Shown here piece by piece: positions 19,211 to 33,332 of a stretch of DNA of 33,890 bases. Under the pieces are notes generated by a model, which made no database searches, was not told the DNA's origin, and worked only from the letters and a program-made list of their open reading frames with translations. Source of the stretch: Methanobacteriota archaeon (GTDB lineage: Archaea > Thermoplasmatota > Thermoplasmata > Methanomassiliicoccales > UBA472); the NCBI GenBank assembly GCA_012729095.1, contig JAAYDU010000068.1:1-33890 (forward strand), in the 5' to 3' direction. The translations under genes and the position numbers were made by a program. Within the stretch, counting starts at the first letter, position 1. Every line of letters starts with the position of its first letter.

Positions 19211-19498
19211 ATGGAGATTGGTGAAGTCGCCAAGGCGCTGTCATCGGACACCCGCCTGAAGATACTGAAGCTCCTCGCCGAAGGGGAAGCCTCCGCGATC
19301 CACGTCTATAAGTTGTACAACGAGCAGTTCAGCGACCGGCGGGAAAGGGCCACTATCTATCGGGAGCTGGAAGTGCTCTACAAGGCCAACTTCCTGGTCA
19401 AGACCTATAGGGAGGAGAGCAAGGAGATAGTCTACAGGCTTGCTGCAAGGTCCATCAAGCTCGATCTAGTGATGCAGACCGCCTCGGCCGGTCCGTGA
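19211..19498 (+). CDS. ArsR-like winged helix-turn-helix regulator
   Basis: A 95-residue DNA-binding protein. IGEVAKALSSDTRLKILKLLAEGEA is the typical first part of an ArsR winged helix. The recognition helix region follows at about residues 45-60 (RERATIYRELEVLYKA), then the wing (LVKTYREESKEIVYRLA). No obvious metal-binding cysteine pair is present, so the signal is not a classical ArsR metal site. It is divergent from the cysteine-rich ferredoxin-like gene and directly precedes the three tandem small genes; either is a plausible target. Confidence 0.8.
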   Translation: MEIGEVAKALSSDTRLKILKLLAEGEASAIHVYKLYNEQFSDRRERATIYRELEVLYKANFLVKTYREESKEIVYRLAARSIKLDLVMQTASAGP

Positions 19499-19551
19499 CC
19501 ACCACGCACATACCATCTCGTTGCACGATGTGACAACCCGATACGTTCTGG

Positions 19552-19568
19552 CGTAACAAGTCATTATA
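19552..19568 (+). promoter_or_regulatory. Promoter block of small-protein copy 1
   Basis: The sequence CGTAACAA-N4-TTATA recurs, with the same 4-nt spacing, before all three small-protein genes. TTATA would be the TATA element and the AACAA segment could be a BRE or an operator. The predicted transcript start, about 25 nt downstream, falls just before the stem-loop at 19597. Confidence 0.6.
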
Positions 19569-19596
19569 CCTTATGAAAGAAATCTCACGTTCATCG

Positions 19597-19616
19597 GTAG
19601 CGGCTCGTTCCGCTAC
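19597..19616 (+). other. 5'-leader stem-loop of small-protein copy 1
   Basis: A perfect 7-bp stem, GTAGCGG/CCGCTAC, with a 6-nt loop. It ends 3 nt before the GGAGG ribosome site (19620-19624) and lies at the predicted 5' end of the mRNA. The other two copies have a stem in the same place with different sequence. Confidence 0.55.
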
Positions 19617-19631
19617 TCTGGAGGAAAAAAC

Positions 19632-19841
19632 ATGGTCGATGTGGAACTGACCTTCGGTGTCCCGGAAAAGGTCGCTGCCGAGGTGAAGAAGAAGTTCAAG
19701 AACGAGAAGGACGCGCTGCGCGTCTGCAAGGCGAACCCATCGTTCCCGCCTTACTACTCCGTCGGAGACCCCAGGGCCAAGCCCGAGAAGATCAAGGTCG
19801 ACGGAAAGGAGTACTGGGTCTACCGCTGCTTCAAAGGTTGA
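19632..19841 (+). CDS. Small conserved protein, tandem copy 1
   Basis: A 69-residue soluble protein of unknown function and the first of three tandem paralogues. It has an acidic/basic helical N-terminal half (VEVKKKFKNEKDAL-type pattern), then NPSFPPYYSVGDPRAKPE and a C-terminal VDGKEYWVYRCFKG. Two cysteines (34 and 67) could form a disulfide or bind metal, but no CxxC is present. It has a strong GGAGG site and its own promoter block and leader stem-loop, suggesting high expression. Compared with copies 2 and 3 it differs at several positions (for example PEKVAAEV against PDKVADEV), so it is the most diverged copy. Confidence 0.85.
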   Translation: MVDVELTFGVPEKVAAEVKKKFKNEKDALRVCKANPSFPPYYSVGDPRAKPEKIKVDGKEYWVYRCFKG

Positions 19842-19860
19842 TCCATCCGTTCTTAGGCAT

Positions 19861-19873
19861 CAAACCCCTTCCC
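19861..19873 (+). terminator. Shared 3' motif after copy 1
   Basis: CAAACCCCTTCCC, identical to a motif after copy 3 (20726-20738). It is followed by a short AT-rich stretch ending in TTTT. It probably marks the transcript end, although pyrimidine-rich terminators of this kind are also seen elsewhere in the window. Confidence 0.4.
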
Positions 19874-19980
19874 ATCCATAATTTTCAGAAAATTGTCAGA
19901 AACGAAACTTCGTGTCCGAACGGGATCCGTTGCACGCCAGGAGAACGGGTATCGCCCGCATGCAACTGGTTACACAGGCG

Positions 19981-19997
19981 CGTAACAAAGCCTTATG
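19981..19997 (+). promoter_or_regulatory. Promoter block of small-protein copy 2
   Basis: CGTAACAA-N4-TTATG, the second instance of the shared block. It is preceded at 19966-19974 by CTGGTTACA, which has a counterpart (CTGGATACA) before copy 3, so copies 2 and 3 share a longer upstream region than copy 1. Confidence 0.6.
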
Positions 19998-20023
19998 CTC
20001 CTATCGACTGTTAAATCGTTCAA

Positions 20024-20037
20024 GCGGCGAGAGCCGC
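20024..20037 (+). other. 5'-leader stem-loop of small-protein copy 2
   Basis: A perfect 5-bp stem, GCGGC/GCCGC, closed by GAGA, a GNRA-type tetraloop. It ends 5 nt before the GGAGG site at 20043-20047 and begins 31 nt after the first base of the TTATG box, near the predicted transcript 5' end. Confidence 0.55.
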
Positions 20038-20054
20038 GGCAAGGAGGAAAAAAC

Positions 20055-20267
20055 ATGGTCGATGTGGAACTGACCTTCGGCGTCCCGGACAAGGTAGCCG
20101 ATGAGGTAAAGAAGAAGTTCAAGGATGAGAAGGACGCGCTGCGCGTCTGCAAGGCGAACCCATCGTTCCCGCCTTACTACTCCGTCGGAGACCCCAGGGC
20201 CAAGCCCGAGGAGATATCCGTCGACGGAAAGAAGTACTGGGTATACCGCTGCTACAAGGGCGACTGA
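20055..20267 (+). CDS. Small conserved protein, tandem copy 2
   Basis: A 70-residue paralogue of the preceding gene, ending YRCYKGD. Cysteines are kept at positions 34 and 67. The central coding stretch (residues about 35-55) is identical in protein and nearly identical in DNA to both other copies, pointing to recent duplication or gene conversion. The ATG at 20055 follows GGAGGAAAAAA; the frame stays open upstream to about 19995, but that would include the promoter and leader hairpin. Confidence 0.85.
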   Translation: MVDVELTFGVPDKVADEVKKKFKDEKDALRVCKANPSFPPYYSVGDPRAKPEEISVDGKKYWVYRCYKGD

Positions 20268-20284
20268 GCCCCTCGTGACGCTTG

Positions 20285-20310
20285 ACCCTTTAAACCTTTT
20301 CCTTTTTTCA
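20285..20310 (+). terminator. T-rich terminator after copy 2
   Basis: A pyrimidine-rich stretch with TTTT and TTTTTT runs (20297-20308) shortly after the stop, consistent with archaeal intrinsic termination. It replaces the CAAACCCCTTCCC motif seen after copies 1 and 3. Confidence 0.45.
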
Positions 20311-20419
20311 TCCTCATCGGACCGCCCGGGCGCGCCCTCGATATTTTGGACCGGCGTCCATGTGCGCGTCTCTAAAATGATGGACGCGATTCCGATGCGG
20401 GAATCTGGATACAGTTCCA

Positions 20420-20436
20420 CGTAACAAACCCTTATA
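20420..20436 (+). promoter_or_regulatory. Promoter block of small-protein copy 3
   Basis: CGTAACAA-N4-TTATA, the third instance of the shared block. The predicted transcript start is about 20460, exactly where the leader stem-loop begins. Confidence 0.6.
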
Positions 20437-20459
20437 CACCCGGACGGTCTCTCAGGGTC

Positions 20460-20477
20460 TGGTGGATCAACCCACCA
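20460..20477 (+). other. 5'-leader stem-loop of small-protein copy 3
   Basis: A perfect 6-bp stem, TGGTGG/CCACCA, with the loop ATCAAC. It ends 3 nt before GGAGG at 20481-20485. The stem sequence is unrelated to those of copies 1 and 2, while its position and pairing are kept. Confidence 0.55.
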
Positions 20478-20492
20478 AACGGAGGAAAATAC

Positions 20493-20702
20493 ATGGTTGA
20501 TGTAGAACTGACCTTCGGCGTCCCGGACAAGGTAGCCGATGAGGTAAAGAAGAAGTTCAAGGATGAGAAGGACGCGCTGCGCGTGACCAAGGCGAACCCA
20601 TCGTTCCCGCCTTACTACTCCGTCGGAGACCCCAGGGCCAAGCCCGAAGAGGTCACCGTCGACGGAAAGAAGTACTGGGTCTACCGCTGCTTCAAGGGCT
20701 GA
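20493..20702 (+). CDS. Small conserved protein, tandem copy 3
   Basis: A 69-residue paralogue. The first 33 residues are identical to copy 2, but Cys34 is replaced by threonine (RVTKANPS), leaving only Cys67. If the two cysteines form a functional pair in copies 1 and 2, this copy has lost it. It has its own promoter block, leader stem-loop and GGAGG site. The function is not recognised; conservation of the YYSVGDPRAKPE and YWVYRC segments suggests they are the functional core. Confidence 0.85.
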   Translation: MVDVELTFGVPDKVADEVKKKFKDEKDALRVTKANPSFPPYYSVGDPRAKPEEVTVDGKKYWVYRCFKG

Positions 20703-23168: not shown

Positions 23169-23489
23169 TCACTCCGTATCTTCCTCTTCAAGCTGTTTCA
23201 TGCGCTTCCTCAGGTCCTCAAGCTCTAGCTCCAGGTCCTTGGCGCATTGCTCCAGGAAGCGGCGCTCCTCGGCGGGGTCCGGGCGGGGAGCGTACATCGG
23301 GGCTGGGACCATGGGTGCCGGCACGTATGCGGGATAGCCCCGTCCCCATCCGCGGCCCCATCCCCGTCCATAGCCCATTCCCGGGCCAGGGTTGACAAAG
23401 CCCGGCGCGTCGTATCCGGCGCAGTATCCTCTCCTCCTTCCAGTCAAAGGCCCCCATCCCGAGGGCCCCATTCCATCTCCTCTTGGCAT
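23169..23489 (-). CDS. DUF5320 family glycine-rich protein with C-terminal coiled coil
   Basis: A 106-residue protein starting with MPRGDGMGPSGWGPLTGR, the signature of DUF5320 proteins, followed by a Gly/Tyr/Arg-rich region (GMGYGRGWGRGWGRG) and a coiled-coil C-terminus (LEQCAKDLELELEDLRKRMKQLEEE). In other genomes such proteins lie beside DUF134 regulators and dinitrogenase iron-molybdenum-cofactor-like proteins; their role is unknown but metal-cluster handling is suspected. A good ribosome site (GGAGTGAT) precedes the ATG. It is the second DUF5320 gene of this cluster. Confidence 0.8.
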   Translation of the reverse strand: MPRGDGMGPSGWGPLTGRRRGYCAGYDAPGFVNPGPGMGYGRGWGRGWGRGYPAYVPAPMVPAPMYAPRPDPAEERRFLEQCAKDLELELEDLRKRMKQLEEEDTE

Positions 23490-23512
23490 TGTTGATCACT
23501 CCTTGTTTCTGC

Positions 23513-23788
23513 TCAATAGCGTCGGTACGGGTCAGGTTCGCAGTACTGGTCGATATAGGGATCGCCCCATGCACGGCCGCGCCCCCAGCCTCTTCCGAAA
23601 CCCATTCTCATTCCTATTCCCATTCCGCGGCCGTATCTCAGGCCCCTTCCGAAGCCGAATCCGCGCCCGCGGCCTAGACCAAGGCCCCGGCCCATGAAAC
23701 CGGGTGCGTTGAACCCGGCGCAGTAGCCCAGCCTTCGTCCGGTCATGGGCCCCCATCCTGAGGGCCCCATTCCATCTCCTCTTGGCAT
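23513..23788 (-). CDS. DUF5320 family glycine/arginine-rich protein
   Basis: A 91-residue paralogue of the neighbouring protein, sharing MPRGDGMGPSGWGP.TGRR.GYCAG at the N-terminus with near-identical DNA. It lacks the coiled coil. Instead it has an extended Gly/Arg/Phe-rich stretch (GRGLGLGRGRGFGFGRG) and a short aromatic/acidic end with DPYIDQYCEPDPYRRY. The longer frame to 23827 is not favoured because ATG 23788 matches the family start. It sits between the DUF134 regulator and the other DUF5320 gene, all on the same strand. Confidence 0.78.
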   Translation of the reverse strand: MPRGDGMGPSGWGPMTGRRLGYCAGFNAPGFMGRGLGLGRGRGFGFGRGLRYGRGMGIGMRMGFGRGWGRGRAWGDPYIDQYCEPDPYRRY

Positions 23789-23826
23789 ATGCCATCGCTC
23801 CATTCTCGTGTTCGATGGTCCTCTCA

Positions 23827-24153
23827 TTACCGGTACTTGCCGATGTAGGTGGTGTGCTCACCCGATTCTATACGGATGGGCCTTCCGTTCACCAAGGCAG
23901 TGGCAACCTTGACCCTGGCCGATCGCAGGTCGCTCCAGAACGTCCTTCTGGATATGCCCATGCGGGCCGAGGCCTCCTCCTGGGACAGACCTTCTAGGTC
24001 CACCAGCCTAATGGCCTCCAGTTCGGCGTAGCTCAGCACCACCGGCGCGCTTGGGCCGTTGGCGGTGCCATGCGGACCAAAGTACGTCGCGGAGGGTACG
24101 TTCTCCACCCAACGGGGGCCTCTGCCTCTGCCTCTTCCCGGTGACGGGACCAT
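23827..24153 (-). CDS. DUF134/UPF0251 family DNA-binding protein
   Basis: A 108-residue predicted DNA-binding protein. The N-terminus is basic and Gly/Arg-rich (GRGRGRGPRWVENVP). The centre has a sigma-70-region-4-like helix-turn-helix: LSYAELEAIRLVDLEGLSQEEASARMGISRRTFWSDLRSA is diagnostic of UPF0251. ATG 24153 is favoured over 24177 because the TATA-like ATTTATATA is centred 28 nt upstream of 24153. It probably controls itself and the two DUF5320 genes downstream, whose promoter it shares. An inverted repeat ATTGCTC/GAGCAAT flanks the TATA box. Confidence 0.85.
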   Translation of the reverse strand: MVPSPGRGRGRGPRWVENVPSATYFGPHGTANGPSAPVVLSYAELEAIRLVDLEGLSQEEASARMGISRRTFWSDLRSARVKVATALVNGRPIRIESGEHTTYIGKYR

Positions 24154-24157
24154 CAAT

Positions 24158-24207
24158 ATTGCTCTAGGTCGCAACATATATAAATAATATTTGCAAAACT
24201 GAGCAAT
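24158..24207. promoter_or_regulatory. Promoter of the DUF134-DUF5320 operon with flanking 7-bp dyad
   Basis: ATTGCTC at 24158-24164 and GAGCAAT at 24201-24207 are exact reverse complements, 36 nt apart, one on each side of the TATA-like ATATATAAAT (24176-24185). If the DUF134 protein is autoregulatory, these are candidate binding sites; this is inference. Confidence 0.4.
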
Positions 24208-29075: not shown

Positions 29076-32000
29076 ATGGTATTCCAAATCGAGGGGAGGG
29101 TCCATTTGAATTTCAATAGAATATCCTGTAGAGCACTTACGATGCTCGTCATCACCTGCATGTTGACAGCTCTTTTCATTCCCGGGTTCGTATCGACGGT
29201 CCAGGCTGCCGAATATACCGCGCACGGAACGATCCGTATCGACGGCGAGGCCGATCTGGCCTCTTGGATTGCCAACAACGGCACCGGTTCAGGCACGGAG
29301 AGCGATCCGTACGTCATACAGGGACTGAACATCACCGGCAGCGATGGAATATGCATATACGTAGGGAACACCACCTCCCACTTGGTGGTCAGGGATAACT
29401 TCCTGCATGGTGCGAGCTCCTACGTCTCCGAGTACGCTACAGGCGCCGGGATAGCCCTCTTCAACGTCATAAACACCGTGATCGACAGCAACAACTGCAC
29501 AGACAACGTCGAGGGCATACGGCTAATTTACCATTCCAATCAAAACACGATCTCGAACAATACCGTCGACGGCAACACCGAATACGGCATACATCTCAAC
29601 AGTTCGACGGACAACACCATATCGAACAACCTAGGAAACGACACCGGGGACGGGATCTACCTGTACTCCTCCGGCAGCAACATGCTGTACGAAAACGTTT
29701 TAACGAACAACACGAACGGCATCCATCTGGAGTATAGCGCCTATTGTACCATCTCGAACAACACCTGCGGCAACAACGAAAACGGGATACTCCTGGATTC
29801 CACAAAGGCATTGAACAACCTGGGCCACAGCGTGGTGGGCAACAACTGCAGTTCGAACCATTACGGCATACTGATGCACCTGGGCATGACCAGCACGTTC
29901 TCGAACAACACCTGCAACGACAACATCTACGGCCTACGCCTGGATACAAGCACCAACAGCCGCATCGTCGCCAATGAAATGATCGGGAACAGCTTTGGGA
30001 TCAGTATCGATCTGTCGTATGACGTCGATGTTCTCAACAACCTTTGCATCGGCGGCATCAGCGATGGCATAAGTCTCCAGAGCAGCCATGACAACGTCAT
30101 ATCCGGAAATCTACTTGGTAGCAACATGTACGGGGCGAGGCTGCATGGTTCGCCCGGTAATGTGCTTTCTTTCAACGACTGCCTGGATTGCATTGACGGT
30201 CTGCGGGTCGCATACTCCGACGACAACACTATCCACGGCAACAACTGCAGCTGGAATACTAACGGCATACATGTGGACCATTCCTCGAACGCCACACTGT
30301 ACGAGAACAACTGCACCAACAACGATTACGGCATATTTGTGGGAGATTCCTCGAACACCACGGTCCACGACAACAATTGCAGCGAAAACGGCGATGGCAT
30401 CCGCCTGAGATCTTCCGATAACAGCTCACTGTCGCAGAACTGGTGCCATGGCAACTCGAACAGCAACATATACCTGCAGGACAGCAATGACAATTCGGTA
30501 TCCGACAACGACTGCAGCGATAGCGACTTGTACGGAATTTATCTGGTACATTCCGCCTCGAACCACGTCGAGAACAACAAGGCTTCCCGTAACCAGCACG
30601 GGATCCTACTAGTGTGGGAGCATACCAAAGACAATCTGGTGGCGAACAACACCTGCGCCATGAACGACGAACACGGCATATTCCTGAACTTTTATAGCCA
30701 CGATAACGTCATCAGCAACAACTCGATCTCCAGCAACGGGAACAGCGGCATAAGGTTGGGAAGCGATGTGAACAATAATCATGTCCATGACAACGATTGC
30801 GACCTGAACGCTCGCAACGGTCTCTCAACCTATTCAGCGCGCAACAACAACATCACAAGGAACTCCTTCTCCGGGAACCTGCAGCACGGGATCAGTTTGG
30901 AATCCTCCGCGGACAATATGGTCTACGGCAACACTCTGATCGACAACAACGGCGCGACCTCCATATGGAACCTGACGCACGCCCAGGCCTATGATGATGG
31001 CACCAACAGCTGGAACACCACGGCGTACGGCAACGAATGGAGCGACTGGCAGTCACCCGACGACCTGGAGCCGTTCGGGATAGTTGATTCGCCATACGTC
31101 TTGGCCGGTGGCCAAGATCACAGACCGCTTGCGAGCGCCTCATTCAACATTACATCTCCGCCAGACGGGGCGTTCATGACGCAACCGAACGCCACCGTCT
31201 CCGGCACGGCGCGTTCGTTCCAGATCGTTTCGATCGTCTGGCACAACGTGGCGGACGGGTCATATGGCAACTTCACCGTGGCCAGTGATTGGTCCGGCAC
31301 GGTCCCTGTGGTACCCGGGTACAACGAGATAACCGTCACCATGACCGATGGTGCCGGAAGAACGCTCAGTGACAGCGTGACGCTGGTATTCGACATCCTC
31401 GAGCCGTTCCTGGATATACTGTCACCGGAGAACGGCTCCTACAATAACAACGGCAGCGTCACGGTGGTCTGGACGGGAAGCGACGAGGATACCGGGATCG
31501 ATCACTACGCGGTATCCGCCGACGGCGAGTCCTGGACGAATGTCAGCGCCACGCAGGAAACGTTCCTGCTTCCCGAAGGTACGCATGTTCTGCTGGTGCG
31601 CGCCTACGACCTGACTGGCAACTTCAACGAGAGCGGGGTGACCGTCATCGTGGACATGACATCTCCATCCCTGGAGATACTGTCCCCGGAGGACGGTTCC
31701 TATAACAGCACCGGCAACGTTACGGTCACGTGGGTGGCGGAAGATGCCACCGCCGGGATCGATCGCAGCGAGGTGAGCGTGGACGGCGGGGATTGGACGA
31801 CGGCCAACGGAACCTCGTATGCGCTGAGCGAACTGGATGAGGGTTCGCATACCGTGCAGGTCCGAACCTGTGACCTGGCGGGCAACTTCAACGGGAGCAG
31901 TGTCAGTTTCACCGTGGACATCACGGCGCCGTCGCTGGAGATAACATCCCCGGAGAACGGCTCCTACAATAACAACGGCAGCGTCACGGTGGTCTGGACA

Positions 32001-33332
32001 GGAAGCGATGGACTTTCCGGCATCAGCGGTTACGAGGTCAGCCTTGACGGGGCGGCATGGGCCGAGGCCGCCGGAACACAGCACACGTTCGAACTCACCG
32101 ACGGCGTGCACACCATCCACGTTCGGGCGCATGACCTGGCAGGCAACTCCGTGGGAAGCAATGTGACGTTGACCGTTGACACGGTCTCGCCTCTGCTGAA
32201 TATCCTTTCGCCCAATGATGGTTCGTACAACAGCACCGGGAACGTGACCGTGGCGTGGGTTGCGGAAGACGCCACCTCCGGAACGGATGTCTGCGAGGTA
32301 AGCTGCGACGGCGTGAACTGGACGGCGGTCGAGGATGGGCAGCACACGTTCGAACTCACCGACGGCGTTCACACCATCCACGTTCGCGTTTACGACCTGG
32401 CAGGCAACTTCAATGTGAGCAACGTGACCTTCATCGTGGACACGATCGATCCCACCGCGGAGATAACGCCGACCGGTGAGAACGCTGGTATCGGGGATCC
32501 TATCATGGTCCACTTCTCCGAGGAGATGGATTGGAGTGGCCTAACGGTATCCGTTAACGGATCGCTGGCGACCTTCACGATCGGTCATGGCAATGTGACG
32601 TTGATCGATCAGGAGCTGGACCACTGCACGGAGTACACGGTGATCGTGTCAGGGGCAGACTTGGCCGGTAATCAGCTGTTCCTGTCCCACACCTTCCGCA
32701 CGACATGCATGGGGAGCATCGACGGACTTCTGGTCGATGAACAGGGCGCTTTCATGTCCGGTGTCACCGTCTATCTGGGCGACGCTATCACCACGGAGAC
32801 CACAGAGAGCGGTGAGTTCATTTTCTCCAACATCCCCATCGGTGACTACACCCTGGCCGTCGAGCTGGAGGGCTACGAGACCCTGACGGCGGAGGTGACC
32901 GTAGTGGTCGGCCATACCCACATGGGCGTTCTGACCCTGTACTACGCGGGGGTTTCCGTGATCGGCGTCCTGATCAACGAGGACGGCGATGCCCTGGGAG
33001 ATGTCATCTTGGAACTGAGCGGTGTGGGCACCCAGGTGACCGACGGATCGGGAAACTTCCAGTTCCTCAACGTTAACGAGGGGGAACACGTCCTCAGCGT
33101 CCAAGCGGACGGTTTCGACACGCTGACCGAGAACGTGGTCGTTGGAGAGGACGATGTCGATCTGGGCCAGTTGACCCTGGTGGCTTCGGACGGAGGGAAT
33201 GGCGGCGATGATGAGGATGACAATGATGATGACGGAGGCGCTGACAACACGCTTCTGATGATCGGCGCCATCGTTGCCGCGGTCATCGTCGCGGGCGTGG
33301 TCGGTTACGTCGTCTACACCAAAAGGAAGTGA
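29076..33332 (+). CDS. Large surface protein: beta-helix, Ig-like repeats, C-terminal membrane anchor
   Basis: A 1418-residue exported protein. Residues about 18-45 form a signal peptide ending near VQAA. About residues 75-640 are a right-handed parallel beta-helix with NosD/PbH1-type repeats of about 22-24 residues (N.ISNN..., YGI.L..S). Four Ig-like modules follow (about 779-1127). Next is a SbsA/Big_5-type Ig domain (about 1128-1210, HFSEEMD), then two carboxypeptidase-regulatory-like modules (GSIDGLLVDEQGAFMSGV and VSVIGVLINEDGDALGDV). An acidic linker (GGDDEDDNDDDGG) and a C-terminal membrane helix with a YTKRK tail end the protein. Many N-x-S/T sequons suggest heavy glycosylation. The role is probably adhesion or glycan binding; no catalytic motif is seen. 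Confidence 0.9.
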   Translation: MVFQIEGRVHLNFNRISCRALTMLVITCMLTALFIPGFVSTVQAAEYTAHGTIRIDGEADLASWIANNGTGSGTESDPYVIQGLNITGSDGICIYVGNTTSHLVVRDNFLHGASSYVSEYATGAGIALFNVINTVIDSNNCTDNVEGIRLIYHSNQNTISNNTVDGNTEYGIHLNSSTDNTISNNLGNDTGDGIYLYSSGSNMLYENVLTNNTNGIHLEYSAYCTISNNTCGNNENGILLDSTKALNNLGHSVVGNNCSSNHYGILMHLGMTSTFSNNTCNDNIYGLRLDTSTNSRIVANEMIGNSFGISIDLSYDVDVLNNLCIGGISDGISLQSSHDNVISGNLLGSNMYGARLHGSPGNVLSFNDCLDCIDGLRVAYSDDNTIHGNNCSWNTNGIHVDHSSNATLYENNCTNNDYGIFVGDSSNTTVHDNNCSENGDGIRLRSSDNSSLSQNWCHGNSNSNIYLQDSNDNSVSDNDCSDSDLYGIYLVHSASNHVENNKASRNQHGILLVWEHTKDNLVANNTCAMNDEHGIFLNFYSHDNVISNNSISSNGNSGIRLGSDVNNNHVHDNDCDLNARNGLSTYSARNNNITRNSFSGNLQHGISLESSADNMVYGNTLIDNNGATSIWNLTHAQAYDDGTNSWNTTAYGNEWSDWQSPDDLEPFGIVDSPYVLAGGQDHRPLASASFNITSPPDGAFMTQPNATVSGTARSFQIVSIVWHNVADGSYGNFTVASDWSGTVPVVPGYNEITVTMTDGAGRTLSDSVTLVFDILEPFLDILSPENGSYNNNGSVTVVWTGSDEDTGIDHYAVSADGESWTNVSATQETFLLPEGTHVLLVRAYDLTGNFNESGVTVIVDMTSPSLEILSPEDGSYNSTGNVTVTWVAEDATAGIDRSEVSVDGGDWTTANGTSYALSELDEGSHTVQVRTCDLAGNFNGSSVSFTVDITAPSLEITSPENGSYNNNGSVTVVWTGSDGLSGISGYEVSLDGAAWAEAAGTQHTFELTDGVHTIHVRAHDLAGNSVGSNVTLTVDTVSPLLNILSPNDGSYNSTGNVTVAWVAEDATSGTDVCEVSCDGVNWTAVEDGQHTFELTDGVHTIHVRVYDLAGNFNVSNVTFIVDTIDPTAEITPTGENAGIGDPIMVHFSEEMDWSGLTVSVNGSLATFTIGHGNVTLIDQELDHCTEYTVIVSGADLAGNQLFLSHTFRTTCMGSIDGLLVDEQGAFMSGVTVYLGDAITTETTESGEFIFSNIPIGDYTLAVELEGYETLTAEVTVVVGHTHMGVLTLYYAGVSVIGVLINEDGDALGDVILELSGVGTQVTDGSGNFQFLNVNEGEHVLSVQADGFDTLTENVVVGEDDVDLGQLTLVASDGGNGGDDEDDNDDDGGADNTLLMIGAIVAAVIVAGVVGYVVYTKRK
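31410..32457 (+). repeat. Four tandem Ig-like modules in an alternating A-B-A-B pattern
   Basis: Modules start at 31410, 31671, 31935 and 32196 (units of 261, 264, 261 and about 261 bp). Modules 1 and 3 share NNNGSVTVVWTGSD, with 50 identical bp at 31425-31474 and 31950-31999. Modules 2 and 4 share NSTGNVTV.WVAEDAT. Modules 3 and 4 also share HTFELTDGVHTIHVR in DNA (from 32079 and 32340). This points to duplication of a two-module unit and later conversion. Confidence 0.8.

What the first reader, a model, noticed from the sequence alone, without database searches (positions are those of the whole stretch)
19597..20477. Position-conserved, sequence-divergent stem-loops at the 5' end of all three small-gene transcripts
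Each leader has a perfect stem directly before GGAGG: GTAGCGG/CCGCTAC (19597-19616), GCGGC/GCCGC with a GAGA loop (20024-20037), and TGGTGG/CCACCA (20460-20477). The stems are unrelated in sequence, yet all begin about 28-33 nt after the TATA-like box, i.e. at the predicted transcript start, and end 3-5 nt before the ribosome site. Kept structure with changed sequence argues for selection on pairing, for mRNA stability or translational control. The likely leaderless transcripts elsewhere in the window make this leader design stand out.
Basis: partly seen in the sequence, partly recalled or inferred. Interest (0 to 1): 0.75.

Follow-up and report, generated by a model that had tools for sequence, protein, structure and literature searches.

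The report
Structure-conserved hairpins in archaeal mRNA leaders
Three neighbouring copies of a small unknown gene in a methane-producing archaeon each begin their predicted messenger RNA with a short hairpin just before the ribosome site; relatives keep the hairpin while its letters change, so it is probably a real RNA element, most likely a protective 5' end structure, though its function is untested.

Summary
Observation confirmed. The window is from a Methanomassiliicoccales genome. Three tandem 69-70 aa genes (no Pfam, NCBIfam, PDB or fold match) each have a 5-8 bp hairpin about 25-31 nt after the TATA centre and 3-5 nt before GGAGG. Among 27 intergenic leaders with TATA and ribosome site in about 507 kb of this genome, only these three have a strong stem there (0 of 24 others). 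All 10 genomes of the genus keep a hairpin in this slot, with both-sided changes (C-G, U-A, U-G, A-U at the closing pair) and G-U pairs, which favour RNA over DNA pairing. Most relatives from other genera, including another family, have an unrelated stem in the same slot. In this genome the coding parts are 89-95% identical while the leaders match no better than chance. Two corrections: stems 1 and 2 share a core in register (only stem 3 is unrelated here), and SD openness is not predicted consistently. Best reading: a 5'-terminal hairpin protecting the transcript end, about 50% likely; translation control is the main rival. The promoters also carry an inverted repeat unique to these three genes, next to a conserved regulator gene. 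No transcript data were available.

The parts
19540..19559 (+). Inverted-repeat operator candidate GATAC-N8-GTAAC plus AA, gene 1 promoter, overlapping the BRE position
   Evidence: Exact pattern hits in the whole genome only at the three promoters of this family; conserved in genus alignment A2
19563..19569 (+). TATA-like box of gene 1 (ATTATAC)
   Evidence: Conserved position in A2; 30.5 nt before stem
19597..19616 (+). Leader hairpin 1, GTAGCGG/CCGCTAC, 6-nt loop
   Evidence: 49/49 cells paired in c1-type leaders, two pairs with both-sided changes
19620..19624 (+). Shine-Dalgarno GGAGG of gene 1
   Evidence: invariant in A2
19632..19841 (+). Gene 1, 69 aa, lineage-restricted small protein of unknown function
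19969..19988 (+). Operator candidate GTTAC-N8-GTAAC plus AA, gene 2 promoter
19992..19997 (+). TATA-like box of gene 2 (CTTATG)
20024..20037 (+). Leader hairpin 2, GCGGC-GAGA-GCCGC (GNRA loop)
   Evidence: covariation in c2-type leaders, 0/500 shuffles reach the score
20043..20047 (+). Shine-Dalgarno GGAGG of gene 2
20055..20267 (+). Gene 2, 70 aa paralog
20408..20427 (+). Operator candidate GATAC-N8-GTAAC plus AA, gene 3 promoter
20431..20436 (+). TATA-like box of gene 3 (CTTATA)
20460..20477 (+). Leader hairpin 3, TGGTGG/CCACCA, unrelated in sequence to hairpins 1 and 2
20481..20485 (+). Shine-Dalgarno GGAGG of gene 3
20493..20702 (+). Gene 3, 69 aa paralog; coding part 95% identical to gene 2, leader identity at shuffled level
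19211..19498 (+). Winged-helix regulator (ArsR/Fur-like), candidate binder of the operator
   Evidence: PF01475 and NF033788 matches; found next to the family in the genus loci with enough flank and in a second family (L033, L036)

Best explanation
Each of the three mRNAs starts with a short hairpin that fills almost the whole leader between the predicted start and the Shine-Dalgarno site. Selection keeps the pairing and position, not the letters. Most likely the paired 5' end shields the transcript from 5'-end-dependent decay, as 5'-terminal stem-loops do in bacteria. Shown: the hairpins, their position, their persistence with changed sequence in relatives, their rarity in this genome, and a KH-less aCPSF-type beta-CASP nuclease in the genome. 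Inferred: the transcript start, folding in the cell, the stabilising role, and which nuclease is held off.
For: Stem in the slot in all 17 full-length genus leaders, with one mismatch in G006. c1-type: 49/49 cells paired. c2-type: closing pair CG:3 UA:3 UG:3 AU:1, covariation score not reached in 500 shuffles. Unrelated stems in the same slot outside the genus: GGGG/CCCC, GGCG/CGCC, TAGGACA/TGTCCTA, AGGGC/GCCCT, CTTGGGAC/GTCCTGAG. G-U pairs in the stems, which an RNA helix tolerates. 0 of 24 comparable leaders of the genome have such a stem. Coding 89-95% identical between paralogs while leaders are at shuffled-level identity yet all hold a stem. Stem starts 27.3 +/- 3.0 nt after the TATA centre in 12 representatives. 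Beta-CASP nucleases present: aCPSF1 and a 414-aa KH-less relative; archaeal aCPSF2 does 5'-3' decay (PMC3792030), and 5'-terminal stem-loops counter decay in bacteria (PMC3792030, PMC7509114).
Against: No transcript start is mapped. The stem-to-SD distance is about as constant as the TATA-to-stem distance (standard deviation 3.0 nt each), so anchoring at the 5' end is not separated from anchoring at the SD. c1-type leaders would have about 4 unpaired nt at the 5' end if the start is at the usual spacing. c1-type covariation alone is not better than shuffles (126/500). Some outgroup stems are weak or absent (G013, G014b, G014a, G146a). In Methanosarcina acetivorans, changing a hairpin stem upstream of the RBS of PmcrB_mm had little effect on expression (PMC11409679).
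Confidence: 0.5

Rival explanations
1. Translation control: the hairpin tunes ribosome access, either by keeping the leader from pairing with the SD or as a site for a protein or ribosome standby that regulates initiation.
For: In the genus the stem ends 3-6 nt before an invariant GGAGG; GNRA loops (GAAA/GAGA) recur in c2-type leaders, a possible binding feature. Local early-codon pairing with the SD is often predicted.
Against: Stems differ wholly in sequence and loop between lineages, so a sequence-specific RNA binder is unlikely. The SD is outside the stem, and predicted SD openness varies from 0 to 0.9 among members with no clear departure from synonymous shuffles.
Confidence: 0.28
2. A DNA-level inverted repeat: an operator for a DNA-binding protein at the transcript start, not an RNA structure.
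For: The same promoters carry another inverted repeat, GNTAC-N8-GTAAC, next to a conserved winged-helix regulator gene.
Against: Stems contain many G-U pairs (UG:3, GU:2, GU:2, UG:4 and UG:3 at five pairs of 17 sequences) that break DNA symmetry, and half-site sequence is not kept across lineages, unlike the true operator candidate.
Confidence: 0.07
3. Coincidence of composition: GC-rich leaders pair by chance and inherited stems only look conserved.
For: Stems 2 and 3 alone are p about 0.1 against dinucleotide shuffles; about 6% of intergenic SD leaders reach the same stem score; the stems in the genus share ancestry.
Against: Three of three in this genome against 0 of 24 comparable leaders, both-sided changes, and unrelated stems in the same slot in other genera and another family.
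Confidence: 0.07
4. Transcription attenuation or early termination hairpin.
For: It is a hairpin just after the promoter.
Against: No T run follows; GGAGG and A-rich sequence follow instead. Archaeal terminators are mostly T-rich without hairpins (general knowledge).
Confidence: 0.03

Closest known systems
5'-terminal stem-loop mRNA stabilisers of bacteria (E. coli ompA, papA; B. subtilis aprE; cited in PMC7509114 and PMC3997798)
   Same: Short hairpin at or next to the predicted 5' end, followed by a strong SD; sequence of the stem appears free.
   Different: Archaeal host with beta-CASP nucleases; leader is only the hairpin plus SD; stability effect not measured here.
Archaeal 5' UTR structures in methanogens (Methanolobus psychrophilus, PMC5378194)
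   Same: Predicted leader structure in a methanogen.
   Different: There the predicted stem-loop buries the ribosome site and comes with cold-dependent alternative starts; here the stem lies before the SD and leaves it outside.
PmcrB_mm leader hairpin upstream of the RBS in Methanosarcina (PMC11409679)
   Same: Hairpin upstream of GGAGG in a methanogen leader.
   Different: Changing that stem had little effect; no comparison of relatives with kept pairing was seen in the passages read.

Membership tests
5'-terminal stabilising stem-loop (ompA type) | Stem at or within a few nt of the mRNA 5' end | tested here: inconclusive
   TATA spacing puts the start at or 0-5 nt before the stem; no mapped start
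5'-terminal stabilising stem-loop (ompA type) | Pairing, not sequence, is kept | tested here: met
5'-terminal stabilising stem-loop (ompA type) | Strong SD downstream, outside the stem | tested here: met
   GGAGG 3-6 nt after stem in genus
5'-terminal stabilising stem-loop (ompA type) | Longer mRNA half-life with the stem | not testable with these tools
   Needs half-life measurement of stem mutants
Known Rfam cis-regulatory element | Match at gathering score | tested here: not met
   No Rfam match in the whole window
RNA thermometer or SD-sequestering stem | SD inside the stem | tested here: not met
   GGAGG lies after the stem in all genus members; alternative pairing with early codons is not consistent

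The most novel reading that the evidence does not exclude
A lineage of archaea has evolved a structural 5' cap: a sequence-free hairpin that occupies the whole leader of one small-gene family, turned over repeatedly in sequence while pairing was kept, and that protects these mRNAs from a beta-CASP 5'-3' nuclease.
Probability: 0.3. Interest if true: 0.62.

Novelty: new variant of a known kind. Interest (0 to 1): 0.45.

Why it matters
Little is known of how archaeal mRNAs are protected from the 5' end. A natural set of about 25 leaders in which the pairing is kept and the sequence replaced is a ready-made test: the same reporter with different natural stems should behave alike if structure is all that counts. 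The paralogs in one genome, with near-identical coding parts and independent leaders, are also a clean natural control.

Tried and rejected
Rfam scan of the window: nothing. Function of the 69-aa protein: Pfam, NCBIfam, PHROGs, PADLOC, PDB by profile, plasmids, viral contigs, and AlphaFold2 (pLDDT 79.6) plus Foldseek against PDB and BFVD gave no significant match. A sampled phylum-wide profile search (390 genomes) found the family only in the window's own order, Methanomassiliicoccales by its named relatives. Anchoring test (TATA-to-stem against stem-to-SD constancy) did not discriminate. SD sequestration by early codons: tested with synonymous shuffles, no consistent signal. Papers on transcription starts in Methanomassiliicoccales: none held.

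Full report
WHAT IS THERE. The window is contig C64 of an archaeal genome whose closest named relatives are Methanomassiliicoccales metagenome assemblies. Three tandem genes at 19632-19841, 20055-20267 and 20493-20702 code for 69-70 aa paralogs. Each has its own promoter (TATA-like box), a leader of about 35 nt, GGAGG and ATG. The stem ends 3, 5 and 3 nt before GGAGG and starts 30.5, 28.5 and 25.5 nt after the TATA centre.

IS IT MORE THAN CHANCE. One at a time, only stem 1 clearly beats dinucleotide shuffles (stem-score p = 0.002; stems 2 and 3 about 0.10 and 0.12). Taken by position, the picture changes. In about 507 kb sampled from the same genome, 27 intergenic leaders have both a TATA-like box and an SD; three have a stem of score 13 or more ending within 8 nt of the SD, and these are the three genes in question (0 of 24 others). 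Among all 102 intergenic SD leaders, 6 of the 99 others reach it; the gene starts there were called from sequence alone and some are likely wrong.

RELATIVES. All 10 genomes of the genus (own genome included) carry the gene, with 1 to 3 copies, and so do 10 further genomes of the order; a profile search over a sample of 390 genomes of the phylum found it nowhere else. In an alignment made without structure (A2), all 17 full genus leaders have the hairpin in register, one of them (G006) with a mismatch. They fall into two types. In the c1 type (window gene 1) 49 of 49 cells pair, with C-G/U-G/U-A and G-C/G-U/A-U changes, although with seven sequences this does not beat shuffles (126/500). In the c2 type (window gene 2) the pair closing the tetraloop is C-G, U-A, U-G or A-U in different species, the loop is GAAA, GAGA or GAAG, and no shuffle reaches the covariation score (0/500). 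On all 17 the score is reached by 6 of 500 shuffles, and sliding the partner breaks pairing (80.9% down to 26-63%). Related sequences inflate such counts, as the tool warns. Stem 3 of the window is unrelated to both.

Outside the genus the sequence is wholly different, yet a stem sits in the slot in most cases: G137 GGCG/CGCC, G145 GGGG/CCCC, G146b TGGG/CCCA, G142 CTTGGGAC/GTCCTGAG, G143 a longer imperfect one, and in another family G015 TAGGACA/TGTCCTA and G016 AGGGC/GCCCT. G013 and G014b have none, G014a and G146a only weak ones. Outgroup stems and TATA boxes were marked by eye, so that table leans towards the claim.

A natural control lies in the window itself. The coding parts of the three paralogs are 89-95% identical and cluster together in a tree of the genus (100/97 support), which points to duplication with homogenisation, while the leaders match each other no better than shuffled sequence (0.42-0.53 against 0.46-0.49). 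Each leader still holds a stem.

RNA OR DNA. The stems hold many G-U pairs, which an RNA helix tolerates and a DNA palindrome does not. A second inverted repeat in the same promoters, GNTAC-N8-GTAAC, overlaps the position of the BRE, keeps its letters, and has exact matches in the whole genome only at these three promoters. It is a good operator candidate. A winged-helix gene (ArsR/Fur-like) lies directly upstream in this genome and next to the family in the genus loci with enough flank, and also in two genomes of another family where the other neighbours were not found. That it binds the repeat is inferred from neighbourhood.

HOW IT MAY WORK. With an archaeal start about 26-27 nt after the TATA centre (general knowledge), transcripts would begin at the stem or up to about 5 nt before it. 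The leader then is a hairpin plus SD and nothing else. In bacteria a 5'-terminal stem-loop counters decay (stated in PMC3792030; examples in PMC7509114 and PMC3997798). The genome has aCPSF1 and a 414-aa KH-less relative; the Sulfolobus enzyme aCPSF2 works 5' to 3' on mRNAs (PMC3792030). The best-supported mechanism is therefore protection of the 5' end, at about 0.5. Translation control is the main rival (0.28). Neither the TATA-to-stem nor the stem-to-SD distance is clearly the more constant, so sequence does not decide between them. A caution: in Methanosarcina acetivorans changing a hairpin upstream of the RBS of one promoter had little effect (PMC11409679).

THE PROTEIN. No family, structure or fold match was found. 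The AlphaFold2 model (pLDDT 79.6) shows one helix and four strands. Function stays open and does not help to choose a mechanism.

VERDICT. A real, conserved RNA-level leader hairpin (about 0.88 by my judgement), of a kind known from bacteria, here with repeated replacement of the sequence in an archaeal gene family. Function is inferred.

Noticed in passing
window 19540-19559, 19969-19988, 20408-20427: Inverted repeat GNTAC-N8-GTAAC just upstream of the TATA boxes, unique in the genome to these three promoters, next to a conserved winged-helix regulator gene (19211-19498): a likely dedicated operator and regulator.
   Followed up: partly
window 19594-19685: In gene 1 the 5' arm of the stem can pair instead with its own codons about 40-50 nt into the gene in a long helix that also hides the SD (predicted MFE -42 kcal/mol for 102 nt); in the orthologs folded (G001a, G002a) the MFE keeps a leader stem instead.
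   Followed up: partly
window 19632-20702 and relatives: Concerted evolution: the three coding parts of this genome cluster together while promoters and leaders group by copy type across species.
   Followed up: partly
window 23169-24177: DUF134 regulator and Gly/Arg/Met-rich DUF5320-type proteins on the minus strand.
   Followed up: no
window 29076-33332: 1418-aa protein with NosD/beta-helix and Ig-like domains, probably a surface protein.
   Followed up: no
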